The notes under the pieces are model-generated. The model made no database searches, was not told the DNA's origin, and was given only the letters and a program-made list of their open reading frames with translations. Below, piece after piece: positions 7,640 through 28,850 of a stretch of 64,000 nt of DNA. Where the stretch lies: contig NZ_CP045997.1 in NCBI RefSeq assembly GCF_010233585.1, positions 8,456,149 to 8,520,148 of the forward strand. The letters are read 5' to 3'. Source of the DNA: Spirosoma endbachense. Lineage in GTDB: Bacteria; Bacteroidota; Bacteroidia; Cytophagales; Spirosomataceae. A program made the position numbers and the translations under genes. Position 1 is the stretch's first letter. Each line of letters begins with the position of its first letter.

Positions 7640-7640
7640 A

Positions 7641-7703
7641 CTAGATCAATACTATTTCCTAAACTACATCAAGGAACCCGCCTAAGGGCTTGCCGTAGCT
7701 TTG
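7641..7703 (+). promoter_or_regulatory. Activator-type promoter of the SnoaL-like gene
   Basis: Two direct boxes, CTAGATCA (7641-7648) and CTACATCA (7664-7671), start 23 bp apart; 24 bases after the second lies a perfect Bacteroidota -7 box, TAGCTTTG (7696-7703). No TTG -33 element is present at the expected place, as expected for an activator-dependent promoter. Exactly the same spacings occur after the paralogous Crp/Fnr gene at 28788-28850. The start codon of the next gene is 40 bases downstream. Confidence 0.7.
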
Positions 7704-7743
7704 TCCTGTCAAAACAAGACGACAATTAAAAAAAGACAAAGCA

Positions 7744-8106
7744 ATGGACAAGCTCCTCAACAACATTCAACAACTGAACCAGCTCGTGCTCGACGGCCGG
7801 GCAATAGATGCCTTCGAGCACTACTACGACGAACAGGTCGTCATGCAGGAAAATGCATTGCCGCCTACAATCGGTAAAGCCGCAAATCGTCAGCGCGAAC
7901 AGCTGTTTTATAGCAACCTCACGGCCGTACATACGGCTCGGGTACTCGACACAGCCGCGGGTGATGGCGTAACGATGGTCGTTTGGCAGTATGACTATAC
8001 GCACAAAGAGTGGGGTCGCAAAAACTACACGCAGGTATCGGTGCAGCACTGGCGCAACGACAAAATCGTTCGTGAGCAATTCTTCTATGATTCGGTACCC
8101 GCCTGA
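7744..8106 (+). CDS. SnoaL-like / NTF2-like fold protein
   Basis: A 120-residue single-domain protein without signal peptide. The pattern of an N-terminal helix pair (LNQLVLDGRAIDAFEHYYDE) followed by VVMQEN and a run of beta-strands (GVTMVVWQYDYTH, KNYTQVSVQHWRNDKIVREQFFY) is typical of the SnoaL/NTF2-like superfamily, whose members are ketosteroid-isomerase-like cyclases, hydrolases or ligand-binding proteins. The specific substrate is not recognisable. It is preceded by the Crp-type promoter at 7641-7703 and followed after 53 bases by a DoxX gene, which may share the transcript. Confidence 0.7.
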   Translation: MDKLLNNIQQLNQLVLDGRAIDAFEHYYDEQVVMQENALPPTIGKAANRQREQLFYSNLTAVHTARVLDTAAGDGVTMVVWQYDYTHKEWGRKNYTQVSVQHWRNDKIVREQFFYDSVPA

Positions 8107-8159
8107 ACTCTTTTTATCATCGAAGCCCAACGGTTAATCGCCGTATAACTTACAACATC

Positions 8160-8663
8160 ATGTTTCAAAAAATCATTGCCACCCGCAGCGATTGGGCGGG
8201 ATTGGTACTTCGTTTGCCGCTCGGCACAGTAATGCTATACCATGGATTGCAGAAAGCTGTCGGTTGGTTTGGCGGCTTTGGCTTCAGCAATACTATGCAA
8301 TTCTTCACCGATACGGTTCATATCCCCTGGCTTATTGGTCTTTTGACCATTGGCATCGAGACGATTGGCGCTATCGGACTGCTGCTGGGTTTGCTGGGGC
8401 GGGTCAATGCACTGGCGACCTTTACTGTTATGCTGGGAGCGATGCTGACCACACATTTGCCAGTTGGCTTCTCCATGAACTGGTTCGGCAACCAGAAAGG
8501 AGAAGGTTACGAAATGGACCTGCTCATTTTCGGCATGAGCCTGGCCTTGCTAATTATTGGCAGTGGTCGCTATTCGATCGACCGTCTTCTTGTGCAACGT
8601 GCTGGTTCGTCGGAGAAAAACCCGGCCAGTCAGCCCCAGTCGCAAACGGCAACCCTCAGGTAG
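8160..8663 (+). CDS. DoxX family membrane protein
   Basis: A 167-residue integral membrane protein with four hydrophobic segments, the first being LVLRLPLGTVMLYHGLQKA, a hallmark of the DoxX family (conserved RLPLG..ML.HG.QK). DoxX-like proteins are associated with small redox-active membrane complexes or sulfur metabolism, but the role of most members is unknown. The tail after about residue 145 (SSEKNPASQPQSQTATLR) is hydrophilic and low in complexity. Probably co-expressed with the preceding SnoaL-like gene. A second, shorter DoxX-like gene occurs at 61240. Confidence 0.88.
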   Translation: MFQKIIATRSDWAGLVLRLPLGTVMLYHGLQKAVGWFGGFGFSNTMQFFTDTVHIPWLIGLLTIGIETIGAIGLLLGLLGRVNALATFTVMLGAMLTTHLPVGFSMNWFGNQKGEGYEMDLLIFGMSLALLIIGSGRYSIDRLLVQRAGSSEKNPASQPQSQTATLR

Positions 8664-8818
8664 ATTCGTTCATGTTTCCCTATTGCCCGGAAGCCCGCCA
8701 GAACAAGGAAAAGCATAATCTCGCCTGATTTTGGGCATTGTATGGTTCGTTGAATAATGTGCCGCAATAGCCCCCCTTTTTGTCGTTTTCGCCCTCCATT
8801 AACGGCAACGATCAAGCG

Positions 8819-8826
8819 TATATTTG
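8819..8826 (+). promoter_or_regulatory. -7 box of the PhnB-like gene
   Basis: TATATTTG matches the Bacteroidota -7 consensus TAnnTTTG exactly, 32 bases before the start codon at 8859. No convincing -33 TTG lies at the normal distance, so promoter strength is uncertain. Confidence 0.45.
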
Positions 8827-8858
8827 CCTTAGTATTAACTGGCAATAAGGTAAACAAC

Positions 8859-9320
8859 ATGCAAAAGATCACGACATTCCTGACGTTCAACGACCAGGCC
8901 GAAGAGGCCGCGAATCTGTATACGTCGATTTTTAAAAACGCAGAAATTGACCACATTTCCCGGTATGGTGAGGCAGGTCCGGCACCGGCAGGAACGGTAA
9001 TGACTGTTATGTTTCACCTCGATGGGCAGGAATTTATAGCCTTGAATGGTGGACCTCATTTTACGTTTGCCGAAGGTATTTCACTCTTCGTTAACTGCGA
9101 AACTCAGGAGGAAGTAGACAATTTTTGGGAGAAGCTTTCTGAAGGTGGTGAAAAGGGCCCCTGTGGCTGGCTCAAAGACAAATTCGGGGTATCGTGGCAA
9201 ATTGTGCCGTCGGTATTGAATAGCCTGTTGCAGAGCAAAGACGCGGAGAAATCAAAACGGGTTATGGAAGCCATGATGAAAATGTCTAAGCTTGACATCA
9301 AAACATTAGAAGAAGCGTAA
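8859..9320 (+). CDS. PhnB-like VOC family protein
   Basis: A 153-residue vicinal-oxygen-chelate fold protein of the PhnB/3-demethylubiquinone-methyltransferase-like type: MQKITTFLTFNDQAEEAANL, then YTSIFKNAEI, GQEFIALNGGPHFTF, LFVNCETQEEVDNFW and GWLKDKFGVSWQIVPSVL are all signature stretches. The start at 8859 is chosen because homology begins there; an in-frame start at 8757 would read through the promoter. Members are often annotated as glyoxalase-like, but no defined reaction is known. A strong terminator follows at 9334-9385, so this is probably a single-gene unit. Confidence 0.88.
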   Translation: MQKITTFLTFNDQAEEAANLYTSIFKNAEIDHISRYGEAGPAPAGTVMTVMFHLDGQEFIALNGGPHFTFAEGISLFVNCETQEEVDNFWEKLSEGGEKGPCGWLKDKFGVSWQIVPSVLNSLLQSKDAEKSKRVMEAMMKMSKLDIKTLEEA

Positions 9321-9333
9321 GCCATATCGTCAT

Positions 9334-9385
9334 AAACAGAGCGGGCAGGAGACCTCATCGAGGGTATTCCTGCCCGCTCTGTTTT
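9334..9385 (+). terminator. Strong intrinsic terminator after the PhnB-like gene
   Basis: Perfect 17-bp inverted repeat (9334-9350 and 9368-9384), GC-rich at its core (GAGCGGGCAGGA / TCCTGCCCGCTC), with a 17-base loop and TTTT directly at the 3' end. It lies 14 bases after the stop codon. Confidence 0.87.
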
Positions 9386-9405
9386 AAAGACCTGTCTGAG
9401 TAAAG

Positions 9406-9473
9406 TGAGCGTTTCAACAAACCAACTTTGAGCGTTTCAACAAAGTTGCCCCTCCAAATAGAGCCGACCTTTG
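9406..9473 (+). promoter_or_regulatory. Direct-repeat operator and promoter of an SDR gene
   Basis: The 16-mer TGAGCGTTTCAACAAA occurs twice without change at 9406-9421 and 9429-9444 (23 bp start to start). Next come TTG at 9446-9448 and a near-consensus -7 box GACCTTTG at 9466-9473, 17 bases apart. Repeats immediately upstream of the -33 element suggest activator binding. The SDR start codon is at 9495. The AraC-family protein at 11606 is a candidate regulator by proximity only. Confidence 0.5.
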
Positions 9474-9494
9474 TCAAAATAAAAATCACAGACA

Positions 9495-10385
9495 ATGACA
9501 AAAGTTTGGTTTATTACAGGAAGTTCACGGGGGCTTGGACGGAGTCTTACCGAAGCCGTACTCGCCAATGGTGACCACGTAGTGGCAACAGCCCGCAAGC
9601 CGGAACAATTAGCAGAACTTACCCAGAAGTATCCGGATCAGATCTACCCGGTCCGGTTGGATGTTACCGATAAAGCACAGATCATCTCCGCTGTTGAACA
9701 GGCAATAACCCGTTTTGGTCGTATAGACGTATTGGTAAATAACGCTGGATTTGGCATCATTGGTGCCGCAGAAGCCTTTACCGACGAGCAGGTACGCAGC
9801 CAGTTGGAAACGAACCTCTATGCGCCGATCGAAGTAACCCGCGTTGTGTTGCCTTACATGCGTAAGCAGCGCTCTGGTCGCATTCTGCAAATCAGTTCAG
9901 TAGGCGGCCGAGTCGGGAATGCCGGATTAACGATGTATCAGGCCGCTAAATTTGGACTGGGTGGTTTTAGTGAAGCGTTGAATAAAGAAGTGGCTCCCCT
10001 TGGCATACGGGTAACGAGCGTAGAACCCGGCGGATTTCGTACCGATTGGGCTGGTGAGTCCATGACCTATGCTCCGTCAATTGACGACTATGCATCAACT
10101 GTAAACCAAAGGGCCGATTACTTTAAGAGTGGCTCCTTTGTTCCAATGGGTGATCCCGATAAGGCCGCAAAAGCAATGATTGATCTGGTCGAGCATCCGG
10201 AGCCGCCTGTGCATTTGGTACTGGGCAGTGAAGCCGCCAGTCTTTTGACACACGCCGACGCCGAACGAAAGGCTGAGTTCGAAAAATGGATGCCGGTAAG
10301 CATCTCCACCGATCATGATGAAGCCGCCAATTTTCTGGAAACAGCGTTAGGGAAAGCGTTTGTGAACCGGAAGGGTAATGATTAA
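9495..10385 (+). CDS. Short-chain dehydrogenase/reductase (SDR)
   Basis: A 296-residue classical-type SDR. Visible motifs: the NAD(P)-binding GSSRGLGR near the N terminus, NNAGFG, the catalytic Ser in ISSVGGRVG, Tyr and Lys in MYQAAKFGLGGFSEAL, and PGGFRTDW after it. It is longer than the usual 250 residues and ends in a C-terminal extension typical of the oxidoreductase group that starts KVWFITGSSRGLG. The substrate is unknown. Its upstream region carries a 23-bp-spaced direct repeat. It is one of five SDR genes in this window. Confidence 0.92.
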   Translation: MTKVWFITGSSRGLGRSLTEAVLANGDHVVATARKPEQLAELTQKYPDQIYPVRLDVTDKAQIISAVEQAITRFGRIDVLVNNAGFGIIGAAEAFTDEQVRSQLETNLYAPIEVTRVVLPYMRKQRSGRILQISSVGGRVGNAGLTMYQAAKFGLGGFSEALNKEVAPLGIRVTSVEPGGFRTDWAGESMTYAPSIDDYASTVNQRADYFKSGSFVPMGDPDKAAKAMIDLVEHPEPPVHLVLGSEAASLLTHADAERKAEFEKWMPVSISTDHDEAANFLETALGKAFVNRKGND

Positions 10386-10430
10386 ACGATAGGCATCAGC
10401 CCCGAGAGCTGTTGTCTTACTCGTTGCCAG

Positions 10431-10448
10431 AGATCACTTCATTGATCT
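10431..10448. promoter_or_regulatory. Short palindrome upstream of second SDR
   Basis: AGATCA (10431-10436) and TGATCT (10443-10448) form a perfect inverted repeat with a 6-base spacer in the 176-base gap before the SDR at 10562. It has the size of a dimeric repressor site, but no regulator can be assigned. Confidence 0.3.
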
Positions 10449-10561
10449 ATAGCAATAAAACTATATACCTGTATGTCAGTCGGATACACGGCCTTTATGA
10501 CTAACATCGGGTACCGTTGCAGGAAGTCAGAAAATAATAAAAAGTAAAAAAGGAGGTTATT

Positions 10562-11362
10562 TTGGACCTGAAATTAGTAGGTAAACGTGCTTTGGTGACC
10601 GGATCAAGTTCCGGTTTGGGCGAAGCGATTATCAGGATGCTGGCCGCCGAAGGGGCAGCCGTTGTAGTGCATGGTCGTGACGAAAATCGGGCTAATGCCG
10701 TTGCGGAGGCCATTCGTACAGAAGGTGGTCAGGCCGATGTTGCCATCGGCGATCTGGCCACCGATTCCGGTGCCGATACCGTAGCCAATACGGCATTGAA
10801 CGGCGGAGCAATCGACATTCTGGTCAACAACGCCGGAGCCTATCACCACATGAACTGGATGGAAGCTACTCCCCAAAACTGGATCGAGACGTACGAATCG
10901 AATGTGTTGTCCGGCGTACGAATGATACACCGGCTGGTGCCGCAGATGCGTGAGCGAGGCTGGGGTCGTGTCATCCAGATTGGTGGAGGTCTTGCCCAGC
11001 AGCCGATCCCGATGCAGCCCGATTATAATGCTTCGTTGGCGGCTCGCCATAATCTGGCCGTTTCGCTGGCCCGCGAGTTGAAAGACTCAGGAGTGACGTC
11101 AAACGTTGTAGCGCCGGGAGCCATTCTTGTCCCAAGTGTTAAAGCGTTGCTGATGAATCTTGCACCAGCTAAAGGTTGGGGCACTACCTGGGACGAGATT
11201 GAACGAAATGCGGCCCGTGATTTTGTGCCAAATGATATAGGACGTTTTGGCCGTCCGGAAGAAATAGCCGGAGCCGTTTCGTATCTGGCGAGTTCTTATG
11301 CCGATTATATAAGTGGTGCCGTTCTGCGTGTCGATGGGGGCACCATCCGCTCGGCATTTTAA
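10562..11362 (+). CDS. SDR family oxidoreductase with TTG start
   Basis: A 266-residue SDR with GSSSGLGE cofactor loop, NNAGAYHH, PDYNASLAARHNLAVSLARE around the active site and a C-terminal YISGAVLRVDGGTIRSAF typical of the FabG-like group. At the position where Tyr is expected the order is PDYNASLAARHN: Tyr is followed by a non-canonical Ala-Arg where YxxxK is usual (Y..SLAA), so the catalytic Lys seems to be absent and activity may be altered. The TTG at 10562 is the likely start: an unusually good AGGAGG sits 5 bases upstream (10551-10556) and MDLKLVGKRALVTG fits family N termini. No ATG fits. Confidence 0.87.
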   Translation: MDLKLVGKRALVTGSSSGLGEAIIRMLAAEGAAVVVHGRDENRANAVAEAIRTEGGQADVAIGDLATDSGADTVANTALNGGAIDILVNNAGAYHHMNWMEATPQNWIETYESNVLSGVRMIHRLVPQMRERGWGRVIQIGGGLAQQPIPMQPDYNASLAARHNLAVSLARELKDSGVTSNVVAPGAILVPSVKALLMNLAPAKGWGTTWDEIERNAARDFVPNDIGRFGRPEEIAGAVSYLASSYADYISGAVLRVDGGTIRSAF

Positions 11363-11422
11363 CAGGATCAATGATCTATTGGCAAGGATCATTAGAACTC
11401 ATTTAATAGTCCAGCGGGATTC

Positions 11423-11436
11423 AATTCGTACGAATT
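11423..11436. promoter_or_regulatory. Perfect 14-bp palindrome upstream of AraC gene
   Basis: AATTCGTACGAATT is a perfect palindrome in the 243-base gap between the SDR and the AraC-family gene. A second inverted repeat, CTGCTTAAC (11520-11528) and GTTAAGCAG (11566-11574), lies nearer the start codon and could form a leader hairpin. Their roles are unknown. Confidence 0.3.
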
Positions 11437-11605
11437 ATTGTTCGTCTTTAAGCACATTGAACTCGCACGAATGACCCGTTTGGGTTCTTTGGGTTCACCA
11501 AAGACTCTGGTAACAGTAACTGCTTAACGCCTAAAGTAAGCGCTGAAAAGGGGCTGCCGTAAGCTGTTAAGCAGCTTCTGTTTATTTGAATAAACATGTA
11601 TCCGT

Positions 11606-12412
11606 ATGACGCTGCTCGAGGGCGAAAAGAGATCGGCACAAATACTCTATTCCTGCTACCATACCCGAAGCCGGGAGGGCGAACAGTTCATTCCTGAGCA
11701 TATTTTCAGCTACCAGATTGCGGGGACGCTGGCCATGAATGACGGGAATAAAGAGTATATTTTTAATGAAGGTGATTTCAGATTCTGCAAACGAAATCAC
11801 CTGGTTAAATTTAACAAGCAGCCACCCGAAGGCGGTGAATTTAAATCTATATCCGTCTATCTTGATCAGGAAACCCTTCGAAATGTTAGTCTGGAATATG
11901 GCTTTAATGGCGAAAAACATCAGGAAGGCGATTCCATACTTCAGCTAAAGCCTGCCAGACTTTACGAAAGTTACATGAATTCGCTGATGCCTTATGATCA
12001 GCTACGGCAGCCGGCCAATGAAAACCTGCAGTCCATAAAATTGAAGGAAGCGATTTTGATTTTGCTGCAAACAAATCCGGAATTAAAGACCGTTTTGTTC
12101 GACTTTTCGGAACCGGGCAAAATTGATCTGGAAGGATTTATGAACAAAAACTTTCACTTCAATGTGGAGTTGAAACGGTTTGCCTATTTAACGGGTAGAA
12201 GCCTTGCTACGTTTAAGCGTGATTTTGAGAAGATATTTCATAGTTCGCCCAGTCGCTGGTTACTGCAAAAAAGGCTACAGGAAGCGCATTACCTAATTAA
12301 AGAAAAAGGTAAAGCCCCCTCGGATGTATACCTCGACCTGGGCTTTGAGGACCTGTCACATTTTTCGTTTGCCTTTAAAAAAATGTACGGTTCATCGCCG
12401 TCAAGAATCTGA
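11606..12412 (+). CDS. AraC family transcriptional regulator
   Basis: A 268-residue regulator. The N-terminal half (FSYQIAGTLAMNDGNKEYIF, NEGDFRFCKRNHLVKFNKQP) is a cupin-like sensing domain, and the C-terminal hundred residues are the double helix-turn-helix domain: RFAYLTGRSLATFKRDFEKI for the first HTH and VYLDLGFEDLSHFSFAFKKM followed by YGSSPSR for the second. The ligand is unknown. It may control the SDR genes upstream, where direct repeats precede the promoter, but that is inference from neighbourhood. A large inverted repeat follows the gene. Confidence 0.92.
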   Translation: MTLLEGEKRSAQILYSCYHTRSREGEQFIPEHIFSYQIAGTLAMNDGNKEYIFNEGDFRFCKRNHLVKFNKQPPEGGEFKSISVYLDQETLRNVSLEYGFNGEKHQEGDSILQLKPARLYESYMNSLMPYDQLRQPANENLQSIKLKEAILILLQTNPELKTVLFDFSEPGKIDLEGFMNKNFHFNVELKRFAYLTGRSLATFKRDFEKIFHSSPSRWLLQKRLQEAHYLIKEKGKAPSDVYLDLGFEDLSHFSFAFKKMYGSSPSRI

Positions 12413-12469
12413 CTTTTTCTTTAAATGGGTGGTGTCTCAGTTTGAATTTTAATGCTTGATTGCCTCGTG

Positions 12470-12544
12470 CTCTTGTGATTACAAACCTATAAGCCGGGCC
12501 GCCGTAGCGGTATCAAAAACCTTATAGGTTTGTAATCACAAGAG
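12470..12544. repeat. 24-bp inverted repeat between convergent genes
   Basis: Perfect 24-bp arms at 12470-12493 and 12521-12544 enclose a 27-base loop. It lies between the AraC gene (+) and the M20 amidohydrolase gene (-), whose stop is 3 bases away, so it could end transcription from both sides. There is no T-run, and the inner CTTATAGGTTT is itself nearly palindromic, so it may instead be a dispersed hairpin repeat. Confidence 0.6.
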
Positions 12545-12546
12545 TA

Positions 12547-13839
12547 CTAGTTTCGGTCGATGGCCAGCATCGTTTGTAATAACACATTGGCCCCATGTCC
12601 AATGTCAACTCCTTTTGAGAATTCTTTGGGCGAATGACTGATACCGCCCACGCTGGGTATGAAAATCATGCCAACGGGTGCGATTTGTGCCATTTCCTGC
12701 GAGTCATGCCCGGCCCCACTCTGCATATACCGGTACGATAGGCCCAACGATTTGGCTGCACCGATGATTTTGTCCTGAATCGGTTTGGCCGTGAGAGCGG
12801 GAGTTACCGGCACACCAGACTTTTCAAATGTGATCGTCGTTTCGGAGGTTTTGGCAATTTCCTGGGCTTTGCCTTCTACTTCGTGAAATAGTTTCCAGAT
12901 TTTATCGTACGATAAATCCCTGATTTCTATGCCTAACACTACTTTACCCGGAATGACATTATACGCACCGGGTTCGATCGCTATTTTGCCGACCGTACCG
13001 ACTTGCCTGCCTTCGTGACTGGTAACTACTTCGTTCAGAGCAACAATCAGTTTAGCCGCTGCCAGCAGCGCATCGCGTCGACTATTCATGGGCGTTGTGC
13101 CAGCATGGTTGGCCGCGCCCTCAATCGTTACGTCCCAGTGTTCAATCCCAACAATCCCCTCTACCACACCAATCTGTAAATTTTCTGTCATTAAGATACC
13201 GCCCTGCTCGATGTGCAGTTCGATAAAAGCGGTCAAATCGCCTTTTTTTCTGACCACTTTGCTCAGACTATCCGGGTTACCGCCAATTGCCCGGATGCCA
13301 TCGGCTATCGTCAGCCCGCTTTGAGTTACCGACTTTAACGCGAGTGGGGTAATTTTTCCGATTATGGCACCGCTACCGATTGTACCCCCTTCTTCATTGG
13401 CAAAAATGATCAGTTCCAGCGGGTGTTCCGTGATGATGTTATTTTCGTTGAGAGTTTCAATGAGTTCCAGCCCACTGATGGACCCGACAGGCCCATCGTA
13501 ATTACCGCCATTGGGTACACTATCGATGTGCGAACCAAAGGCGATGGGTTTCAGGGCTGGATTCTTCCCTTTTCGTCGGCCAATGATATTGCCCGCGTAG
13601 TCGACCGTTACGACGAGTCCGGCTTTTTTCATCAAGCCCATAAAATAGGCCCGGCCTTCCTGATCGGCTTTGCTATACCCGACCCGACCAACTCCACCGT
13701 TGGGCAATGCGCCAATTTTCGATAACTCCAGCAGCCGATCCTGTATCCGCTGCTGATTGATTTTCAGGTTGGTTGTCTGTACCTGGGCACTTGCCACAGA
13801 TGAAACCAGAAACAGGCAAACGAGTAGTGTGTTTTTCAT
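12547..13839 (-). CDS. Exported M20 family amidohydrolase (N-carbamoyl amino acid / allantoate type)
   Basis: A 430-residue zinc-dependent hydrolase of the M20 peptidase superfamily, closest in pattern to N-carbamoyl-L-amino-acid hydrolases and allantoate amidohydrolases. A signal peptide (LLVCLFLVSSVASAQ) puts it in the periplasm. Metal and catalytic residues are visible: His and Asp in GSHIDSVPNGGNYDG, Glu-Glu in FANEEGG, His in IELHIEQG, and His in QSGAGHDSQEMA near the C terminus. The lid domain contains NHAGTTPMNSRRDAL, also characteristic. It is the last gene of a minus-strand series with a P1 peptidase and a prolyl-aminopeptidase-like lipoprotein, which suggests amide or peptide scavenging. 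The exact substrate is open. Confidence 0.88.
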   Translation of the reverse strand: MKNTLLVCLFLVSSVASAQVQTTNLKINQQRIQDRLLELSKIGALPNGGVGRVGYSKADQEGRAYFMGLMKKAGLVVTVDYAGNIIGRRKGKNPALKPIAFGSHIDSVPNGGNYDGPVGSISGLELIETLNENNIITEHPLELIIFANEEGGTIGSGAIIGKITPLALKSVTQSGLTIADGIRAIGGNPDSLSKVVRKKGDLTAFIELHIEQGGILMTENLQIGVVEGIVGIEHWDVTIEGAANHAGTTPMNSRRDALLAAAKLIVALNEVVTSHEGRQVGTVGKIAIEPGAYNVIPGKVVLGIEIRDLSYDKIWKLFHEVEGKAQEIAKTSETTITFEKSGVPVTPALTAKPIQDKIIGAAKSLGLSYRYMQSGAGHDSQEMAQIAPVGMIFIPSVGGISHSPKEFSKGVDIGHGANVLLQTMLAIDRN

Positions 13840-13937
13840 GGACTCTGTCAGAAAGTTTTGGCGCGTGTTTTTAGCTTATTGAACTCAGAAACAGGCTTTT
13901 AGACCGATCTAGTGTTTTCTATCGAAACCTGCTGAGT

Positions 13938-15101
13938 TTACTTAATTCGCCTGTACTTTTTCAGTAAATCAACGACCCGCTTATGCGGAAGGCCATACGC
14001 TTTATTTCCATTAATGCCCTCCATCGTTTCGGCGGCAACCATGGCGTTGATAATGGATTCCTCTACGGCCTGAACGGTGGCCTCAAAAAGCGGATTCATC
14101 TGATCATTGGGCAGTTGATCGAGTTTGGCGATATTTTCCCGTTGAAAAGCCGTTGGGTTTGCGGTTGAAAAGGCAATGAAAATGTCTCCCGAACCATTGT
14201 TTCCTTTACCGCCAACAATGCCCACGCCCAGCGAAACTCGGGTGGCTATCCGTTTCAACTGATGGGGTAATAAAGGGGCGTCGGTGGCAACAACCACAAT
14301 GATAGACCCATCCCCTTCCTGTTTGTAGGATGGCGGGCCTTTGATCTCATAATTCAGCGTATCTTTCAGTTCTTCGCCAATGGGTACGCCTGCAATGGTT
14401 AAATGTCGTTTGGTACCAAAATTAGATTGCACCAGTACACCTACGGTATAGGCGGAGTCTTTAATTTTTACGACTCTCGACGATGTTCCTGTCCCCCCTT
14501 TGAAGCCCAGACACATCATACCTGTTCCTCCGCCCACATTGCCCTCTTCCAAAATGCCCGATTTAGCCTTGTCTAATGCCTCAAAAGCATGGCTTTCTTT
14601 GACATGAAACCCGTAAATATCATTCAGTCCGCCGTCGTATGTTTCGGCCACAATTGGGTACGTGTACCAATAATCTTCTTTATACCAGCCCGTTTTGACG
14701 AACCATTTCAGGACGGCATCTCTAACAACCCCCACGCTGTTTGTATTGGTGATCATGATGGGTGTTTCGAGAAATCCGGATTCAGTAATCCAGGTTGTTC
14801 CTGTCATTTCTCCATTGCCATTCAATGAATACCAATTTGAAAAAACAGGGTTATTCGTTCTGCCTCTTGGTAAAATAGCGGTGACGCCTGTTCTGACGGG
14901 ACCTTTTCCCCGTATATTTTTCCCCTGGCCCGATATGATGGTGCTATACCCGACTTCTACGCCTTTTACATCGGTTATGGCATTGAATTTTCCGGGCGTT
15001 CCCGAAAAAGGAATGCCAATTTCTCTTGCTCTTGGCTTCTGGGCAAAAACCGAAAATTGGCTTGCCACTACGAAAAGGAGTACGGTAAACTGGTTGGTCA
15101 T
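13938..15101 (-). CDS. Exported P1 family (DmpA-like, S58) peptidase
   Basis: A 387-residue member of the P1/S58 family (DmpA, BapA), N-terminal nucleophile hydrolases that cleave themselves into two chains and act on D- or beta-amino-acid peptides. The signal peptide ends in SVFAQ. Signature stretches: GKFNAITDVKGVEVGYSTI, VRTGVTAILPRG, ETPIMITNTNSVGVVRD, EEGNVGGGTGMMC and FKGGTGTSSRVV. The expected autocleavage Gly-Ser lies in DGSIIVVVATDAPLLPHQL, with Ser as nucleophile. Only 14 bases separate it from the upstream lipoprotein gene 15116-16135, so they are probably one operon. Confidence 0.9.
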   Translation of the reverse strand: MTNQFTVLLFVVASQFSVFAQKPRAREIGIPFSGTPGKFNAITDVKGVEVGYSTIISGQGKNIRGKGPVRTGVTAILPRGRTNNPVFSNWYSLNGNGEMTGTTWITESGFLETPIMITNTNSVGVVRDAVLKWFVKTGWYKEDYWYTYPIVAETYDGGLNDIYGFHVKESHAFEALDKAKSGILEEGNVGGGTGMMCLGFKGGTGTSSRVVKIKDSAYTVGVLVQSNFGTKRHLTIAGVPIGEELKDTLNYEIKGPPSYKQEGDGSIIVVVATDAPLLPHQLKRIATRVSLGVGIVGGKGNNGSGDIFIAFSTANPTAFQRENIAKLDQLPNDQMNPLFEATVQAVEESIINAMVAAETMEGINGNKAYGLPHKRVVDLLKKYRRIK

Positions 15102-15115
15102 GTGAATAGTCGGTT

Positions 15116-16135
15116 TTATAAGTTTCCAGAATCTACATCGTGAATAAACTTGATGACTCCGTTCATAAACACCTGTTGGTCATCCCACATTGCCAGATGG
15201 CTTCCGTTGGGGCAATAGAGATAGCGACCTTTTTTGACCAGTTTGCTTTGCTCCTCCATTGCCTTGGGGTCCATCGTATCGTGTTTGGCACCAATCATCA
15301 AGGTAGGGACTGTCAGTTCGTTCAGGCGATTTTTAATATCCCACCTGGCAAGTCGACCGCTAATCCCAAACTCACTCGGCCCCTGCATCAACACATAAAT
15401 GTCATTGTTGGCATGTTTCATAGACCGGTTAAAGCCATCAGGCCATTCGGCCAGACGGCATAAATGTTCATGATAGAAATTGGGAATGAGCAATTCCATA
15501 TAACGCGGATTCGTGAAATCCTTTTTCGCTTCAATCGCCCGAACTTCCGCAAGCACTTCGGGCTTCATTTGTTTGGCAAGCACGTCATCCGCATATTTTC
15601 CATATTCAGGGGCGCTGGCCATCATATTGGCAACCAGTAATCCTTTCAAATGCCTTTGGTACTTCAGGGCATACTCCATTGCCAGAATACCACCCCATGA
15701 ATTGCCAAGCACATAGAAATTTGAACTGTCGGCTCCAATAGCCTGGCGAACCTGTTCGACTTCCTCAACAAATCGTTCGGTTGTCCAGAGGCCGGTGTCT
15801 TTGGGCTGATCGCTGTAGTAAGAACCTAATTGATCGTATTCATAAAATTCAAAGCCCTGTCGCTGAAAAAACGTCTCAAAACATTCCATGTACTCATGCG
15901 TCATGGCGGGGCCACCGTGCAATAGCAGGATCTTTATTTTTGGATTGTTGCCAAACCGTTTTGTCCAGACCTTGAACTCACCCGCTGGCGTTTTAATCGG
16001 GATTAGTTTTACCCCTGCCGATTCCAGTGAATCACCATAACTAAAATAATCTGCGACGGAGACAGCCGTTGACGTATCGTTCTGTTTGCAGGAAACAAGA
16101 AGGCAAATCGCTACAAGGAAGGAGAGTAAACGCAT
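15116..16135 (-). CDS. Proline-iminopeptidase-like alpha/beta hydrolase lipoprotein
   Basis: A 339-residue alpha/beta hydrolase with a lipoprotein signal (LLSFLVAICLLVSC, lipid-acceptor Cys at about residue 16). It matches the proline iminopeptidase (S33) group: oxyanion stretch LLLHGGPAMTHEY, YEYDQLGSYYSD, nucleophile Ser in VLGNSWGGILAMEYAL, Asp in MIGAKHDTMDP and His in NGSHLAMWDD. It would release N-terminal proline or act on related amides, anchored to the outer or inner membrane. It lies directly upstream of the P1 peptidase on the same strand; together with the M20 enzyme this suggests stepwise peptide breakdown in the periplasm. Confidence 0.87.
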   Translation of the reverse strand: MRLLSFLVAICLLVSCKQNDTSTAVSVADYFSYGDSLESAGVKLIPIKTPAGEFKVWTKRFGNNPKIKILLLHGGPAMTHEYMECFETFFQRQGFEFYEYDQLGSYYSDQPKDTGLWTTERFVEEVEQVRQAIGADSSNFYVLGNSWGGILAMEYALKYQRHLKGLLVANMMASAPEYGKYADDVLAKQMKPEVLAEVRAIEAKKDFTNPRYMELLIPNFYHEHLCRLAEWPDGFNRSMKHANNDIYVLMQGPSEFGISGRLARWDIKNRLNELTVPTLMIGAKHDTMDPKAMEEQSKLVKKGRYLYCPNGSHLAMWDDQQVFMNGVIKFIHDVDSGNL

Positions 16136-16172
16136 GGGTTAAGTAGTGAGAAAGTTGATGTATTCAGATCAG

Positions 16173-16252: not shown

Positions 16253-16290
16253 ATACAGGAGCAAAGTTCAGGCAGTAATTATTCGTACAC

Positions 16291-20002: not shown

Positions 20003-20031
20003 AGCTGTGTAGACCTGAAGGAAACCTAGCA

Positions 20032-20824: not shown

Positions 20825-22309
20825 TCAGGCACTCCGGCTGATACCCAATTTTTTCATCTTCGACTCCAGCGTGGTAGGAATTACATCCAGGATGGCTGCC
20901 GCCCCGTTTTTACCGCTTACTTTCCAGCGAGTCATTTCCAGTACGGATAAAATATGAGCCTTTTCACACTCCTCCAACGTAATGGGGCCTAATTTTTTGT
21001 CAAGTGTACCTTTGCGTAATAACCATTCTCCCAGTTCAAGCCGGCGGCCCGATGAGATGATCAGCGAGCGCTCGACAATATTTTCGAGTTCGCGGATATT
21101 TCCCGGCCAGTTGTAGGCAATCAAGGCATCCATAACATCCTGCGTAATGACCTCTATTTTTCGACCGATACTGGGGCCGTGTTTCGCGCAGAAATGTTGT
21201 ACCAGTAAAGGAATGTCTTCTTTCCGCTCGCGCAAAGGCGGGCTTTGGAGCGGAAAAACGTTCAACCGATAATACAGATCCTCCCGAAACCGCCCTTCCC
21301 GAATTTCGTTCTCTAAATTGCGGTTGGTGGCGGCAATCACCCGAACATTGACTTTCAGGGTTTTACTGCTGCCCACTCGCTCAAACTCCCCTTCCTGCAA
21401 CACCCGAAGCAGTTTGGCCTGGAGTTCGATCGGCATCTCTCCGATTTCATCCAGAAAAATAGTACCACCATTCGCTAGTTCAAAGCGGCCGATTTTCTGG
21501 ATTGTAGCGCCGGTAAACGCACCTTTTTCATGCCCAAATAGCTCACTTTCGATCAAGGTAGCGGGTAGAACGGCACAGTTTAATTTGACTAATGGTCGGT
21601 TTCGGCGGGTACTGAGATTATGCACTGCCCGTGCAAGCAGTTCCTTTCCTGTGCCCGATTCCCCCAGAATCAGCACCGTTGTATTCGTTGAGGCTACCTG
21701 CTCTACCAGCGAGAGTACTTTTCGAAACGGCTTACTCTCCGTGACGATTTCTTCAAAATTACTTTTCGACTTAATCTCTTCGCGCAGATAAACATTCTCG
21801 GCCTGCAGCTGAGTCGTCAGATTTTCAACCTCTTTTAATGCCTTCGAGAGCGCTTCTGTCCGCTCTGCCACACGCTGTTCGAGCAGTTGGTTTGCCTGCT
21901 GGAGTTCCCAGCGTAGTTTGCGAAGCGTAAGGTGCGTGTTAATGCGCGACAGTACTTCCTGAAGCTGAAAAGGCTTGGTGATGTAGTCGACGGCCCCCAT
22001 GTTAAAGCCGTTGACCTTGTCAATCGTTTCCGACAAAGCTGTCATGAAAATCACCGGGATGTCGTGTGTGTCCGGATTGAGCTTGAGTCGTCGACACGTT
22101 TCAAAGCCATCCATACCGGGCATCATCACGTCGAGCAACACTAAATCAGGACGGGCATACCGAATTTGCTCAAGGGCGCTTTTCCCATCACGTTCAACCA
22201 GTACTTTGTAGCCATGGCTACTTAGGGTTTCGAATAGGATGCTGATATTATTGGGTGTATCGTCAACAATCAGAATGTTGGCAGATGGGTTGTCGGGCTG
22301 ATCAATCAT
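20825..22309 (-). CDS. Sigma54-dependent response regulator (REC-AAA+-Fis), copy 1
   Basis: A 494-residue NtrC-type regulator. Residues about 10-125 are a receiver domain ([10 protein letters not shown], phosphoacceptor Asp in [15 protein letters not shown], Lys in YITKPFQ). A coiled coil follows ([20 protein letters not shown]). The AAA+ domain has Walker A GESGTGKE, the sigma54-contacting GAFTGA, Walker [12 protein letters not shown] and the arginine-finger region. The C terminus is a short Fis-like HTH ([20 protein letters not shown]). It starts 8 bases inside the end of the upstream sensor gene, so translation is coupled. It is a close paralog of the regulator at 56454-57986, with long identical stretches. 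Target promoters were not recognised here. Confidence 0.95.
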
Positions 22310-25265
22310 GGGTTTCCAGGCAAGTTTTAAGGTACTGTCGGATATGCTTTGTATCGAATTCGTCGGCCATATCCCGAATCTCTTTCACAAAGGGCTGATA
22401 GTGCGAATCAAGCGTTTCAACAAGACGGAGCTGGGTCAAAATACCCTGAATGTCGCCCGTCATGGCTAGCTCATGCAAGGCTTCGAGGTACTGAACAGGG
22501 GGCAACTGGAGTGGTTCGGTATGTGTTTGTGTATCAATGCTTTTGAGTGTAATACTTTCCAAATTTCCGTTCCATACGCCATTTTCAAGACCTTCGACTC
22601 GGGTAATGGCAAGCAGTTTATTGATGAGCGTCAACAGATGCGCCCCGCTTTCCTCAATGATCCGAACGCCCTTCATCTGGTTATCCGTCAAGGCAGCATC
22701 CTGCCGCAACAGTTGTGCAAAACCCAGAATACCATTGAGGGGAGTCCGTAGTTCGTGGCTCATATTGGCCAGAAATTCACTTTTAGCCCGGTTCGCCGTT
22801 TCGGCCGCTTCCTTGGCCGCTTTTAGGTGAACAGCCTGCGCTTCGAGTTCTTCTTTTTGCTGGACAACCTGCGCGGTTCTGGCCTGCACCAGTCGTTCCA
22901 GTTTTGTTTTCTCGTTGGTCAGATGGCGGGTATAGAAGCGAATCAATCCAATCAGACCCAGTGAGATGGCAAAACTGTAGAGCAGATAGGCTATTTTCGT
23001 CTGATACCAGGGTGGAAGTACAGTAAACACGTAGGTACTTTCCTGACTAAGCTGATGGTATGGATTGCTGGCCCGAACGAAAAACGTATACATCCCGGCG
23101 GGCAGATTGGTGTACTCTTTTTTTGTTTCCTTCGTCCATTTCGACCAGTTCGTATCGTCCATCATCAGGCCATGACCCATCAGCCGGTATTGAAATTCAT
23201 TGCCGCTCTCGCCCACAAAACTGCCCGCAGCGAAGTGGAACGTGATGGCCCGATCGTGATAATTGAGTTTAAGGGCTGGCGATTTACTCTGGTTCCCGAT
23301 TGCCAGGAGCGAGTCTGACTCAGTCAGGCGTATTTTCCGAATAAGGGCTGAATAGGGGCGTTTGGGCAGTTTTTTGCTGTCGTTGTAGCGATACAATGCT
23401 TCATCATTGCCAATCCAGATGCTGGCATCGGTATCCGTATAAACCGCGAAACCGCCACGCTGGCAGGGCAACAGACTGGTGCTATCGTAGGCAAAGGCGC
23501 CATTACCCTGGTGACGCAAAACACCCAGTGGACTCGAAAACCAGAATGTGCGCTTCTGGTCCTGCGCGAAATAAGGCGACCCGGTCGTCGCCGGATTATG
23601 AAAAAGAGCGGTAAAGCGGGGATCTTCTATAAAACGATCGCTTCGGACCTGGTATCGGTAAATGCGATTTTTTGTCGTAAAAAACAGCCCTTCTGGGGTT
23701 GAAAAGACGTAATTCCAGGTTAATTGATTGAGCCCTTTCGTAAGCCCATAGTGACGAATCGGCGGATTCAGGCGGATACCTTTTGCTAGATTGACGTAGT
23801 AAAAACCCTGTAGGTGCGTACCGACCCAGAGATTTCCGGTTGAATCTTCCACAATCGACCAGCACTCGCCCGCAATACCTTGTAAAGATCCAAGCCATTG
23901 AAGGCGTCCGTTCGTAAATCGCAGTACGTTGACCCCATCAAACATGGCAGCAAACACTACAGTTGTATCTATTCTTGACCGAGTGAGTGCATAGGCCATT
24001 CCGCCACTCATGTGTACCGATTGCTGGACTTTCCCATCCCGAACCCGAAGAACCGCTCCCATCGACCCAACCAGCAAATCCTGATTGAAGGAGATCATAT
24101 CCCAGCAAGGCGACTCGGAACCAGGTACAGGCTGGAACGATTCAGTCTTTTCGTTTAAATAAACCAGTCCGGTATTGGTGCCTGCATAGAGTTGCTGCTG
24201 GTGTCGAAGTACATCCCAGACGGTAGCACGGATATTCTGAGTGGCTCCAAAACGGGTAATCGGGTTATTGATTTCAATTTTATTGATGCCGTTCGCCAAT
24301 CCCGCCCAAAGCGTTTGCTGTTGATCCAGAAACAAACTGTGCACCCGGTTCTTTGTTAAGCCGGTTTGCTCATTGATTCGCTGCCAAAGCCGACCGTCTT
24401 GCTCAAGAATACGAATGCCTCCACGAAGGCTCGCAATAGCGTAACGAATGCGCCCAGTCGTTGAATCCGGCAGGGCAATTGCCTGTGAAAGATCAGTGCG
24501 CCGGAGCCACTCGTCTTCGGTTGTGATAAATCGTGTAACAGACGCCTGACCGGGTCCGGAATGCAGGAATGGTGCATCATAGAGAAACAATCCATTGTGT
24601 TGCGTCACGATCAGTAATGTCTGATCGGTAAAAGGCAGGACAGACTGTATGGAGACATTGGCAAACTGATTTCCTGCCGGTACAGGTTTAATCGTTCCCC
24701 CTTTGTCGATCTGCATCAGCCCAACCCCATCCTCCTGAACGAACAACCTTTGCCGGGCATAACTCGCTAACTTAAATTGGCGCTTCGGATACCAGACTCG
24801 CACTGACTCGTTCGGCCGATAGCGAATGATCTTCTCGAATGTACAGAAATAGACCCCTTCCGGCGTACAGAATAATCGCCAGACAGGCGGCACGTTTCGG
24901 TCAGTAGCCGGTAGCTTATGCGACAGTGATACGAACTGCGTTTGCCCTGTCGGGGTGGCTTTTAGATAACCAAAATCCGTTTGAGTACCGACGAAAACCG
25001 TACCATTGCCGGCAACGCCCAGAGATCGAACGGTTAGTCCTGGTACATCGATGAGCCGCCAGGAGGAGCCATCGTATTCGAGCAGTCCGTTGTAATTACC
25101 CACATAGATGACCCCTCGTTGATCCTGAACAATGGCCCGATTTTCGGGATGTGCCTGATAATCTTTAGGGCTGAAATGCTGCATAAGTGGACTTCCCGTT
25201 TCTTGCGCCCTTCCTGCCCAACCGACTAGTAATCCAACAAGAATCAGTAAATTCCGAACGTTCAT
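22302..25265 (-). CDS. Propeller sensor with HisKA but no HATPase domain
   Basis: A 987-residue membrane sensor. After a signal peptide ([10 protein letters not shown]) it has two-component-regulator propeller repeats over about 600 residues ([46 protein letters not shown]), a Y_Y_Y domain, one membrane helix ([20 protein letters not shown]), a coiled coil, and a HisKA dimerisation domain with the phosphoacceptor His at about 837 ([19 protein letters not shown]). After HisKA comes a roughly 30-residue linker and then directly the C-terminal module with MTGDIQG (about 920-984). The N, G1 and G2 boxes of an HATPase are absent, and so is a receiver. It therefore probably cannot autophosphorylate and would need the kinase at 25297. 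Gap to that gene: 31 bases. Confidence 0.93.
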
Positions 25266-25296
25266 ATCCTGTTAACTATCAAGGAGGTGCGGCTTA

Positions 25297-27615
25297 TTAT
25301 CTTAAACAAGATTTTAGGTATTCACGCATCTGTTTCATGTCGAATTGGCGAGCCAGTTCTCGAATTGAGTTGACAAACGCGGTGCTATCCTGTTCGGCAG
25401 TACCTATCGAATCCAATCGTGTCAGCACGCCCTGAATATCGCCAGTAAGGGCTGTAGCGTAGAGATCTTCGAGTTGGTGTATCGGCGGAAAGCGAACGGG
25501 ACTGCCTCCGGGACCGAAATCGTTCGCTTTCATCGGTCCACTTGCCGACAGGGGAGCTAGATCGGAATAGATCCAGGTTAATTGTAGCTGTTTCTGAACA
25601 GCATTCAGCAATTGCTCGATGTGGATGGGTTTAGGCAGAAAATCGTCGCTACCCGCATCAATGCTTAATTGGTAACTGTTCAGGATACTGGCGGAGAGCG
25701 CAATAATCTTAACGGCAGAAAAAGCGTGCTGCCTGCGAAATTGCCGAACAGCCTCGAATCCATCCATGTAAGGCATTACCAGATCCATCAGCACCAGATC
25801 GGGTGTGAATTCCCGTGCACGCGTTAGAGCGACGGCTCCGTTTTCGGCCTCTATTGTTCGAAAACCAAGCGGCTCCAGCAAGTTTGTCAATACCGACCGG
25901 TTCTCCCAGTGGTCATCGACGATCAGAATCGTTCGCTGCGTTCCCTGATAGCCGCTAATCTGACGATTACGTTTGGCAATCACTTGCCACGACGAAGCAA
26001 TAGCGGGCAAATTGAGCGTTATCCGGAACGAACTACCCTTGCCCAGAGTGCTGGTAACCCGTAATTCGCCGTTCATTATGGTGACTAATTTTTCGGTAAT
26101 GGTCAGCCCTAATCCTGTTCCTTCCACAAAACGCCCCTCTTCGCGGAGTTGCTGAAAGGGTAGAAAAATCTGATCTAACTTATCATGCGGAATACCAACA
26201 CCGGTATCGTCAACCTGAAAACTGACCTGATTTTCGCCGGGCGCATAGTTCACTTTTAGGGAAACACCTCCTTTGTCGGTGAATTTGACGGCATTACCCA
26301 GCAGATTAATGAGAACCTGACGCAGTTTACGCTCGTCACCAAGTACCAGTTCAGGTATGGGATCTGGGGCTTTGTAGAAGAACGTCAGATTTTTCTGCTC
26401 TGCCTTCACCTGAATCAGGCTGGTGATATTGGTCAACAATTCATTCAGGCTGAACGGGTTCTGGTCGAGTTCCAGCTTCTGCGCTTCAATTTTCGACAGA
26501 TCCAATACGTCATTGATGAGCACCAGCAGGTTTTCGGCGCAGTTATGAATGATATTGATGCCATTCTGCTGATTACCAGTCAGGGATTGGTCTCGCCGGA
26601 ATAGCTGTGTATACCCCAGAATGCCGTTGAGGGGAGTCCGTAACTCGTGGCTCATATTGGCCAGAAATTCACTTTTGGCCTGATTCGCCATTTCAGCGGC
26701 CTCTTTGGCTTTCAGAAATTCCCGCGTTCGCTCAATAACCGTTGCTTCCAGTTGTTCCTGCGTCTGAAGTAGTTTTTCTTCCGCAACTTTCCGCTCGATT
26801 TCGGCCCCCGACCGCGATGCAAAAATGCGCAGTATGCTCAGGTATTTCTGTTGGTTCAGCAAGGGCCGATGGTCGCAGATAGCGATATGTCCGATTACCT
26901 GGCCACCCCGGTCGTTGATAGGTACGCCAACGTATGACTCAATGCCGACTTCTTTGGTAAAATTCAGTTCAACATCGTAGGGATAATAAAAATCCCGGCC
27001 CTGCATCACAATACTGCACGGTGTGTCGGAGAGGTCGTACTCGATGTTTTCAAGGAGCCGATCGTCTTCTACGTAAGCCAGTGTTCGCACCCGTGTTTTT
27101 TCTACGTTAGCGCATTCGGTGACCAACGCAAACCGTACCTGAAGCGTGGTGGTAATATGGCGAACGAGGGTCTGAAAAAAATCCATACCCGTCACGCCCG
27201 CCGTTCCTTCTGAAATCAATCGTAGCGTTTCGTCCAATTGACTCCGTTCGGTTATATCGCGCAGGAAACAACACAGGTATCGATCGCCTTCGAAGTTGAT
27301 TAAATTCATGCCTACCTCAGCCTGAAGCAGTAGACCGCTTTTCCGGCGCTGTCTGGTTTCAAAGGTTAGCGTCGGGAGGTTTTCCAATGATTTCCACAGA
27401 CGGGCAAAACGACTGGCATCGTACTCGATGCTGAAATCGAAAAATGTCAGTTGCTTTAGCTCACTAACCGTATAATCCAGCAAATACCCCGCTGCTTTAT
27501 TTGCCCGATATACCTGCCCATGTTGATCAATCAGCATGATGGCTTCGAGCGCATTTTCAACCGTAAAGTGCGACAGTCGCAGCGTTTTCTCGTCCGTTTT
27601 CGTGCTATCTGCCAT
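25297..27615 (-). CDS. Cytosolic hybrid histidine kinase PAS-GAF-HisKA-HATPase-REC, copy 1
   Basis: A 772-residue soluble hybrid kinase. Order of domains: PAS (about 15-130; [20 protein letters not shown]), GAF (about 150-290; [32 protein letters not shown]), coiled coil, HisKA with His in [16 protein letters not shown], HATPase ([29 protein letters not shown]), receiver ([13 protein letters not shown], Asp in [13 protein letters not shown]) and a C-terminal 65-residue module containing LTGDIQGVL that is shared with both other sensors in the window. It is the first gene of a three-gene operon ending in the sigma54 regulator. GAF plus PAS suggests an intracellular small-molecule or redox cue, unidentified. 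Confidence 0.95.
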
Positions 27616-27805
27616 TTTCTGATTGTCAAACCGGAATCACCTGACCAATGGAGGTAATCAAGGCGTTAGAGCCCTGTCCAATAGCCATCAAGTTTCATTC
27701 CTGTTTTCTGACCAGAATGGATAGCTGATCTAAATGGGCATAGATGAGTATAGGAGCTCATTTCTAAGAAAATGCAGTAAAAAGCAGTGGAAAAATTACT
27801 GGACG

Positions 27806-27844
27806 CATTCACGACATATCCGAACATTCACGATATATCATGAA
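27806..27844. promoter_or_regulatory. Operator-like direct repeats upstream of kinase operon 1
   Basis: CATTCACGACATATC (27806-27820) and CATTCACGATATATC (27825-27839) differ at one base and start 19 bp apart; the second extends into a near-palindrome, TTCACGATATATCATGAA (27827-27844). They lie about 190-230 bp before the kinase start at 27615. Related CGATATTTCG palindromes lie at 55556-55571 and 60526-60541 around the paralogous locus, the latter at the same distance from its kinase gene. Confidence 0.45.
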
Positions 27845-27920
27845 ATTAATGAATTATCCATTTGTGCCTGTTCCTGGTTAGCGCGGAGAAGCGTGGAGTC
27901 GGGATCTTCAACCTGACCCT

Positions 27921-28034
27921 TGTGGTTTAAGAAACTGCATCCGGAACGAACAACGAGGTTTTGAAAATCGCCACGGCGAACCGTCGCATCGGCGAACCGT
28001 CCTCCCTGTGTCAGTTTTAAGAAACTGACAACAC
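27921..28034. repeat. Dispersed hairpin repeat, type 1, copy A
   Basis: The copy starts with a degenerate GTGGTTTAAGAAACTG and ends in a hairpin TGTCAGTTTTAAGAAACTGACA (28009-28030). In between are CGAGGTTTT (27954-27962) and two tandem CGGCGAACCGTC-type modules (27967-27985, 27986-28001). The modules match copy B (35715-35749) nearly base for base and occur inverted in copy C (39612-39630). Confidence 0.7.
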
Positions 28035-28198
28035 ATCACAACACAACATCGGCTAATTCACAGATCAACAATAAGCTAATTTTCAGGGTATTCCGAAAAT
28101 CAATACGCCAGGTTTTATCAAGTCTGGATAATAAATCCAAAACCCGATTAATTCAAAAAGACAATTACTGTTTCATTTGTACTAAAAAGGTGTAAACC

Positions 28199-28786
28199 AT
28201 GGAAGACCTGGCCCCATTTCTTGAGAATGTAAGCAGAAAAGTAAGCCTGTCGCCTGATAATCTGGATCGACTGCTCAAAGCGTTCAAGGTGGTCAGGGTC
28301 AAGAAAAGACAATTTATTATCCAGCCAGACTTTGTAGCCAGGTATCGTTCGTATGTGCTGAAAGGATCTTTTCGTTCGTATGCGATTGACGAAAAAGGGA
28401 TTGAGCATACCATCCAGTTTGCGATCGATGACTGGTGGATTACCGACTACAACAGCTACATCTATCAGACACCGGCAACCCAGTTTGTTGTTGCTCTGGA
28501 AGATAGCATCATTTTGCAGGTTGATTTCCAGGATGAACAGGACCTGAAAGCCTATAGTCACGAGCTGGAAACCCTATTCCGGATGATGGCCGAAAAATCA
28601 GCGGCCTATTTAGCCCGCCGGATCGTTTCCAACCTGACGCAGAATGCCGAACAGCGGTACACCGAATTTATAGAAACCTTTCCTAAAGCCGTTCAGCGCC
28701 TGCCCCAGTATGTGATCGCTTCCTACCTGAACATGACCAGAGAGTTTCTATCGAAAATCAGAAACGATAAAGCGCATAAAAAGTGA
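28199..28786 (+). CDS. Crp/Fnr family transcriptional regulator (copy 2)
   Basis: A 195-residue protein with a cyclic-nucleotide-binding-like N-terminal domain (FIIQPDFVARYRSYVLKGSF, IQFAIDDWWITDYNSYIYQT) and a short C-terminal HTH (PQYVIASYLNMTREFLSKIR). It is a paralog of 7049-7639, and the recognition helix region is nearly the same. The gene ends one base before the first CTACTTCA box of the promoter of the next gene (28788-28850), so it most likely regulates that SDR. The ligand is unknown. Confidence 0.9.
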   Translation: MEDLAPFLENVSRKVSLSPDNLDRLLKAFKVVRVKKRQFIIQPDFVARYRSYVLKGSFRSYAIDEKGIEHTIQFAIDDWWITDYNSYIYQTPATQFVVALEDSIILQVDFQDEQDLKAYSHELETLFRMMAEKSAAYLARRIVSNLTQNAEQRYTEFIETFPKAVQRLPQYVIASYLNMTREFLSKIRNDKAHKK

Positions 28787-28787
28787 A

Positions 28788-28850
28788 CTACTTCACCCAT
28801 TTTTCTTAAGCTACTTCATCGTTTTCAGCCTTCCTTACCCGGCAATTTTG
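28788..28850 (+). promoter_or_regulatory. Activator-type promoter of the SDR at 28874
   Basis: CTACTTCA at 28788-28795 and 28811-28818 (23 bp start to start), then 24 bases, then a -7 box CAATTTTG (28843-28850; consensus TAnnTTTG). The inter-box sequence also shares a TTTCyTAAr stretch with the promoter at 7641-7703. All spacings are identical at the two loci. The SDR ATG is 23 bases downstream. Confidence 0.7.

What the first reader, a model, noticed from the sequence alone, without database searches (positions are those of the whole stretch)
7641..28850. Two paralogous Crp/Fnr genes are followed by the same promoter geometry
At 7641-7703 and 28788-28850 the sequence reads CTAnnTCA, 15 bases, CTACwTCA, 24 bases, then a -7 box (TAGCTTTG or CAATTTTG). 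Both spacings are identical to the base. The 15-base spacers share TTTCyTAAr. Each promoter starts within 2 bases of the stop codon of a Crp/Fnr gene and drives a different gene (SnoaL-like, SDR). The recognition helices of the two regulators are nearly alike. This suggests an uncharacterised activator site replacing the -33 element, perhaps with cross-talk between the two regulators.
Basis: partly seen in the sequence, partly recalled or inferred. Interest (0 to 1): 0.72.

Follow-up and report, generated by a model that had tools for sequence, protein, structure and literature searches.

The report
Regulator genes ending in own operators
Behind each of these two small Crp/Fnr regulator genes lies a pair of likely regulator binding sites, 23 bases apart, that starts in the gene's own stop codon and sits where an activator would touch RNA polymerase at the next gene's promoter; relatives in other Bacteroidota share the layout, and each regulator appears to have its own DNA word.

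The parts
7049..7639 (+). P0001, 196-aa Crp/Fnr-type regulator; predicted fold: beta-roll, dimerisation helix, HTH whose recognition helix ends the protein (helix FTPEFLSRIR)
7635..7650 (+). upstream operator (site 1) CTTAAACT|AGATCAAT, centre 7642/7643; stop codon TAA 7637-7639 lies in its left half
7655..7657 (+). polar T-tract 5' of the class II site
7658..7673 (+). downstream operator (site 2) CCTAAACT|ACATCAAG, centre 7665/7666, 23 bp after site 1, 34 nt before TTTG (about -42.5)
7696..7703 (+). -7 box TAGCTTTG; predicted start of transcription near 7708 (inferred)
   Evidence: box position -12 to -5 from PMC9723704 passages
7744..8106 (+). predicted target 1: SnoaL-like protein; a DoxX-family gene follows at 8160-8663
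   Evidence: a similar gene (by eye) behind the P0001 relative L130
28199..28786 (+). P0002, 195-aa Crp/Fnr-type regulator (helix MTREFLSKIR), no cysteine
28782..28797 (+). upstream operator (site 1) AGTGAACT|ACTTCACC, centre 28789/28790; stop codon TGA 28784-28786 lies in its left half
28802..28804 (+). polar T-tract 5' of the class II site
28805..28820 (+). downstream operator (site 2) CTTAAGCT|ACTTCATC, centre 28812/28813, 23 bp after site 1, 34 nt before TTTG
28843..28850 (+). -7 box CAATTTTG; predicted start of transcription near 28855 (inferred)
28874..29626 (+). predicted target 2: short-chain dehydrogenase/reductase; an SDR-like gene also follows most R-type P0002 relatives

Best explanation
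Each locus is a self-contained cassette: a short Crp/Fnr regulator, its own operator array directly behind (and inside) its stop codon, and the adjacent target gene. A dimer of the regulator binds the better palindrome at about -65.5. A second dimer is placed 23 bp downstream on a weaker copy at about -42.5, where it contacts sigma and alpha and replaces the -33 element (class II activation). The fixed 23-bp pitch suggests that neighbouring dimers touch and bind cooperatively. Specificity is set by recognition-helix residues encoded some 30-55 nt upstream of the operator, so regulator and site travel and change together. Shown by sequence: palindromes, pitch, distances, stop-codon overlap, conservation, helix/half-site covariation. 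Inferred: binding, dimer contact, activation rather than repression, the start site. The signal sensed is unknown.
Confidence: 0.8

Rival explanations
1. Same operators and regulators, but repression: the array blocks RNA polymerase until a ligand releases the regulator, as with many TetR/MarR-type neighbours of detoxification genes.
For: Right half of site 2 overlaps the -33 region; targets look like small oxidoreductase and detoxification-type genes (Pfam on some; by eye).
Against: The centre is held at 33/34 nt from TTTG, and arrays grow upstream in 23-bp steps; a steric repressor does not need this. 33 nt equals -41.5, the class II activator position.
Confidence: 0.15
2. The palindromes are transcription terminators or mRNA hairpins of the regulator genes.
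For: They lie at the stop codon.
Against: AT-rich, loop-free arms; both window segments fold no better than shuffles (z 0.39 and 0.12); a terminator does not explain the fixed distance to TTTG or the covariation with the recognition helix.
Confidence: 0.02
3. The two regulators share one site type and regulate each other's targets.
For: P0001 is the best other match of P0002 in the genome (38%), with similar helices and similar site centres (CTAC). P0001 itself, however, matches three other paralogs of the genome better than P0002.
Against: Half-sites differ at covarying positions and stay different in the orthologs read.
Confidence: 0.08
4. Chance: two similar-looking intergenic stretches picked after the fact.
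For: Bare pattern counts in the genus do not exceed the reversed control much (7 against 5).
Against: 6 of the 7 places lie behind Crp/Fnr genes, and the 23-bp/33-34-nt geometry recurs in dozens of dereplicated relatives.
Confidence: 0.01

Closest known systems
Class II CRP/FNR-activated promoters of E. coli
   Same: Palindromic site centred at about -41.5; protein of the CRP/FNR fold; helix motif E-x-x-S-R goes with TTGAT-like halves, as recalled for FNR, and R before E with GTGA, as recalled for CRP.
   Different: Tandem or triple sites at a fixed 23-bp pitch; operator inside and behind the regulator's own stop codon; seemingly one private operator per regulator; Bacteroidota -7 box instead of -10/-35; polar T-tract on the upstream flank.
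Class III (multi-site) CRP promoters
   Same: More than one regulator dimer at one promoter.
   Different: The passages that I saw place class III sites near -93.5 (PMC5957442), not in contiguous 23-bp steps; other class III spacings were not surveyed.
Regulator of PDB 3dn7 (Cytophaga hutchinsonii)
   Same: Closest solved structure; same short protein type (E 1.2e-50 to P0001; top fold match).
   Different: Helix PEYLSE, which in our set goes with a single palindrome of the TTAAACTGGTTTAA type; no operator known to us.
Bacteroidota sigma-A promoter (TTG near -33, recalled; TAnnTTTG at -7)
   Same: TTTG of the -7 box is the anchor of all distances.
   Different: The -33 region is covered by the operator's right half.

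Membership tests
Crp/Fnr superfamily | N-terminal cNMP-type beta-roll domain | tested here: met
   PF00027 in 17 of 17 members of A1 at E<=0.01; P0002 alone is below the curated cut-off (24.5 against 27.5); model of P0001 mean pLDDT 95.2
Crp/Fnr superfamily | C-terminal helix-turn-helix behind a long dimer helix | tested here: met
   Model helices 122-147, 170-177, 181-195; FNR and CRP structures among the fold matches. HTH_Crp_2 only weak: 6 of 17 members at E<=0.01, P0001 18 bits against cut-off 27, 49 of 70 positions
FNR subfamily (oxygen sensor) | 4Fe-4S cysteines | tested here: not met
   P0002 has no cysteine; P0001 has none before residue 47 (sequences); NCBIfam FNR model 35.8 (P0001) and 23.2 (P0002) bits against cut-off 228
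CRP subfamily (cAMP sensor) | Score above the NCBIfam CRP cut-off | tested here: not met
   NCBIfam CRP model 19 bits against cut-off 266 for P0001; not listed for P0002
CRP subfamily (cAMP sensor) | cAMP-binding arginine of the beta-roll | not tested
   judged absent only by eye against a recalled motif; no alignment to CRP was read for it
Class II CRP/FNR-type promoter | Dimer site centred at about -41.5 | tested here: met
   33/34 nt to TTTG with TTTG at -8 (another genus); the start site itself was not mapped
Class II CRP/FNR-type promoter | Activation through contacts with RNA polymerase | not testable with these tools
   needs in vitro transcription
Bacteroidota sigma-A promoter | TAnnTTTG -7 box | tested here: met
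   TAGCTTTG matches; CAATTTTG matches all but the first T

The most novel reading that the evidence does not exclude
A Bacteroidota-wide class of Crp/Fnr regulators binds as contiguous head-to-tail chains of two or three dimers with a 23-bp pitch that dock on RNA polymerase at about -41.5. Because the recognition helix is the C-terminus and the operator begins in the stop codon, specificity determinant and target site lie within about 60 bp and are inherited as one unit, which would let dozens of paralogs diverge to private DNA words. The collection would be a natural, readable recognition code for the family, including words (TTAA, TGAA, TTTCA halves) not recalled for CRP or FNR.
Probability: 0.5. 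Interest if true: 0.85.

Novelty: new variant of a known kind. Interest (0 to 1): 0.72.

Why it matters
Many genomes of this family hold ten or more such regulators, and no target was known to us. The architecture gives many of these genes a predicted operator, promoter and target from sequence alone, and a large set of naturally matched regulator/operator pairs with which the Crp/Fnr recognition code and the evolution of paralog insulation can be tested directly. The 23-bp arrays would be a new way for this family to build a cooperative switch.

Tried and rejected
Direct-repeat regulator (AraC or response-regulator type): rejected because the copies are palindromes and lie behind Crp/Fnr genes. 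Terminator or RNA hairpin: rejected. Autoregulation at the same geometry: no peak upstream of the Crp/Fnr genes, though one regulator (L005) seems to lie last in an operon behind an array. Further tandem sites of the two window regulators in the own genome: none above control with up to 2 mismatches; single sites were not searched. P against non-P before E as determinant of TTAA/TGAA: fits, but only one change on the tree, so not claimed as shown. A control with period 23 and other distances to TTTG is only graded (123 and 125 hits at 33 and 34, but 118 at 35, 101 at 32, 43 at 24), because the 14-base comparison window slides; the sharp distance evidence is. favours arrays over single sites by its scoring; one search gives the count with a period control. 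Paper searches for a description of this architecture found none in the listings: (term sets given there; slashes cannot be searched, so 'Crp/Fnr' could not be one term, and searches used a spaced form that scored 0 occurrences; subscription journals are mostly absent). Passages of three papers were seen: PMC10036542 (names one Spirosoma Crp/Fnr gene as a UV-response master regulator from homology-based motifs, no such architecture in the passages), PMC9723704, PMC5957442. PMC7366714 was not seen (one search failed).

Full report
What was checked. The two stretches read exactly as stated. The genome is one contig of 10.33 Mb, and the window is its bases 8456149-8520148. The genus is probably Spirosoma: the P0002 relatives in named S. 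arboris and S. panaciterrae records (L218, L222) carry the same operator region as genus genomes G003 and G014 (L037, L038); this is an inference. The exact pattern occurs twice, both in the window, with 0 reversed controls. In 36 genomes of the genus it occurs 7 times against 5 reversed controls. Of the 7 places 6 lie directly behind a short Crp/Fnr gene; one (G015) lies inside an ORF. One of the 6 is the P0001 ortholog in G004. Three (G002, G005, G035) belong to a third regulator, followed by an SDR-like gene (by eye), whose first site is the perfect palindrome GTGAACTAGTTCAC.

What the boxes are. That third regulator shows the symmetry. CTAnnTCA is the centre plus right half of a palindrome, TGAACTAGTTCA in its ideal form. 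In the window the upstream sites are TAAACTAGATCA and TGAACTACTTCA, and the copies 23 bp downstream are TAAACTACATCA and TAAGCTACTTCA. The first three letters of the upstream sites are the stop codons of the regulator genes. The spacer word TTTCyTAAr is a T-tract plus the left half of the second site.

A general layout. 28 loci of the own genome match P0002 at E<=0.001. Many are followed by a palindrome of their own wording, and its centre lies 33 or 34 nt before a TTTG. In the final census 18 of 28 have such a layout behind the gene, 4 as arrays and 14 as single palindromes; 10 have neither at the threshold used. I then fetched relatives: from the genus (97 non-redundant loci with the own genome); from the family (145 of 150 genomes have relatives at E<=1e-35; only a part was fetched, giving 63 genes outside the genus); from the class (128 of 295 genomes at E<=1e-45; 27 genes used); and 51 named P0002 relatives. 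These make the 238 loci used below. The four sets overlap in places (for instance L218 repeats L037, L226 repeats L190) and hold some broken or cut genes; the dereplicated counts allow for the overlap.

Distances. Counting every palindrome (at least 6 of 7 arm positions) against every TTTG, without choosing any distance, gives 11+10 at 33/34 and 9+12 at 56/57 in the genus set, at most 3 at any other offset. Outside the genus it gives 9+6 at 56/57 and 2+3 at 33/34, at most 2 elsewhere. Among all 256 tetramers TTTG has the highest single peak there, 9 at 56; TTAA and CTTA follow with 8 at 16 and 15, which are letters of the palindromes themselves. At the laxer threshold of 5 of 7 a lesser peak appears at 39 (11, 9), probably CTTAAG in the linker; not tested. 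In 160 genes pooled, 86 have a 6-of-7 palindrome within about 135 nt behind the stop; after dereplication 69 remain. TTTG follows at 33/34 in 13+8 and at 56/57 in 11+11, with none at 22-32, 49-55 or 58-60. The palindrome is repeated (at least 9 of 14 letters) at 23 bp in 22 of 69 and at any other offset from 14 to 39 in 0 or 1. Control: 282 stops of other ORFs of at least 150 codons on either strand of the same DNA (some surely not genes) give 49 dereplicated palindromes, with 1, 0, 0 and 1 at 33, 34, 56 and 57, and no repeat at 23. Over all 238 loci a repeat (at least 8 of 14) ending 33/34 nt before TTTG is found with period 23 in 127 (84 dereplicated); every other period from 14 to 32 gives 4-19 (4-16 dereplicated); with at least 9 of 14 it is 65 dereplicated against 1-5. 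Triple arrays by this scoring: 12 of 127. In the class-wide set of 27 genes the peak is weaker (56/57: 2+4, 55: 3, 33/34: 1+2, others up to 3).

Promoter position. In Flavobacterium psychrophilum TAnnTTTG spans -12 to -5 (PMC9723704, passages only). TTTG therefore starts at -8, and a centre 33 nt upstream lies at -41.5, 34 nt at -42.5. CRP class II sites are centred at -41.5 (PMC5957442, passages only). The window arrays are thus predicted at about -42.5 and -65.5. This is extrapolated from another genus; no start site is mapped here.

T-tract. Just upstream of the class II site, at 11 to 9 bases 5' of its centre, T is 95-97% in 76 dereplicated double arrays, 84-95% in 19 triples and 52-95% in 21 single sites, against a background of 32%. 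The mirror position on the other side has 11-14% A in doubles and 14-24% in singles; in triples A rises to 47% at one of the three places. The tract is thus mainly polar, so it may serve alpha-CTD or DNA bending rather than symmetric regulator contacts; this is a guess.

Stop codon. In 81 of 164 scored promoters the first centre lies exactly 3 nt behind the stop codon, against 8 for the next most common place (orthologs included; in the dereplicated set 15 of 69). The stop codon follows the operator word: TGA with a TCA right arm 40, TAA with TTA 27, TAA with TCA 7, TAA with other arms 7, TGA with TTA 0.

Conservation and targets. Of 51 named P0002 relatives, 49 were called as arrays (33 double, 16 triple; this scoring favours arrays), 2 not (L213, L247). 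Downstream ORFs were listed and 8 of them put to Pfam: 3 SDR, 2 carboxymuconolactone decarboxylase family, 1 PRISE-like, 1 MFS, 1 TauD; the rest was judged by their first residues. By that, R-type relatives (Pedobacter, Mucilaginibacter, Puia, Niastella, Chryseobacterium and others) are followed by an SDR-like gene except L213; of 18 T-E-type ones 10 are; of 13 Q-type ones 9 are followed by a carboxymuconolactone-decarboxylase-like gene; five S/T-type triples by an MFS-like gene. Targets in the own genome look, mostly by eye, like small redox, detoxification or membrane proteins. The signal is unknown: neither FNR cysteines nor passing CRP/FNR model scores are present.

Verdict. It is a new variant of class II Crp/Fnr promoters. 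Binding, cooperativity and the sign of regulation remain to be shown. Ten paper searches in the open PMC library listed no description (see Tried and rejected); that library lacks most subscription journals.

Noticed in passing
L125 (G000:C1:5430345-5430379) and L005: An array of the TTGATATTTGTCAA type stands in front of a pirin-like gene (by eye) that is followed by Crp/Fnr gene L005: here the regulator seems to be last in its own target operon.
   Followed up: partly
L216, L219, L224, L227, L234, L235 and others: Triple operator arrays at exact 23-bp steps, mainly with Q-type (TTQYLSK) or EYLSK regulators; Q-type arms read TTTCA instead of TTCA.
   Followed up: partly
L013, L014, L009, L020, L012, L015 (own genome): Single palindromes (6 or 7 of 7 arm positions), each of different wording, 33 nt before TTTG behind other Crp/Fnr paralogs.
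   Followed up: yes
L061, L088, L095, L096, L099, L105, L107, L109: Regulators with helix PEYLSE (as in PDB 3dn7) have a single TTAAACTGGTTTAA-type site at the stop codon.
   Followed up: partly
L067 (G003:C2:185098-185475): The P0001 relative in G003 matches at 88% only up to residue 128 and looks broken.
   Followed up: no
window 7655-7657 and 28802-28804: The polar T-tract is at least as conserved across relatives as any half-site base (the register is blurred by a base or so).
   Followed up: partly
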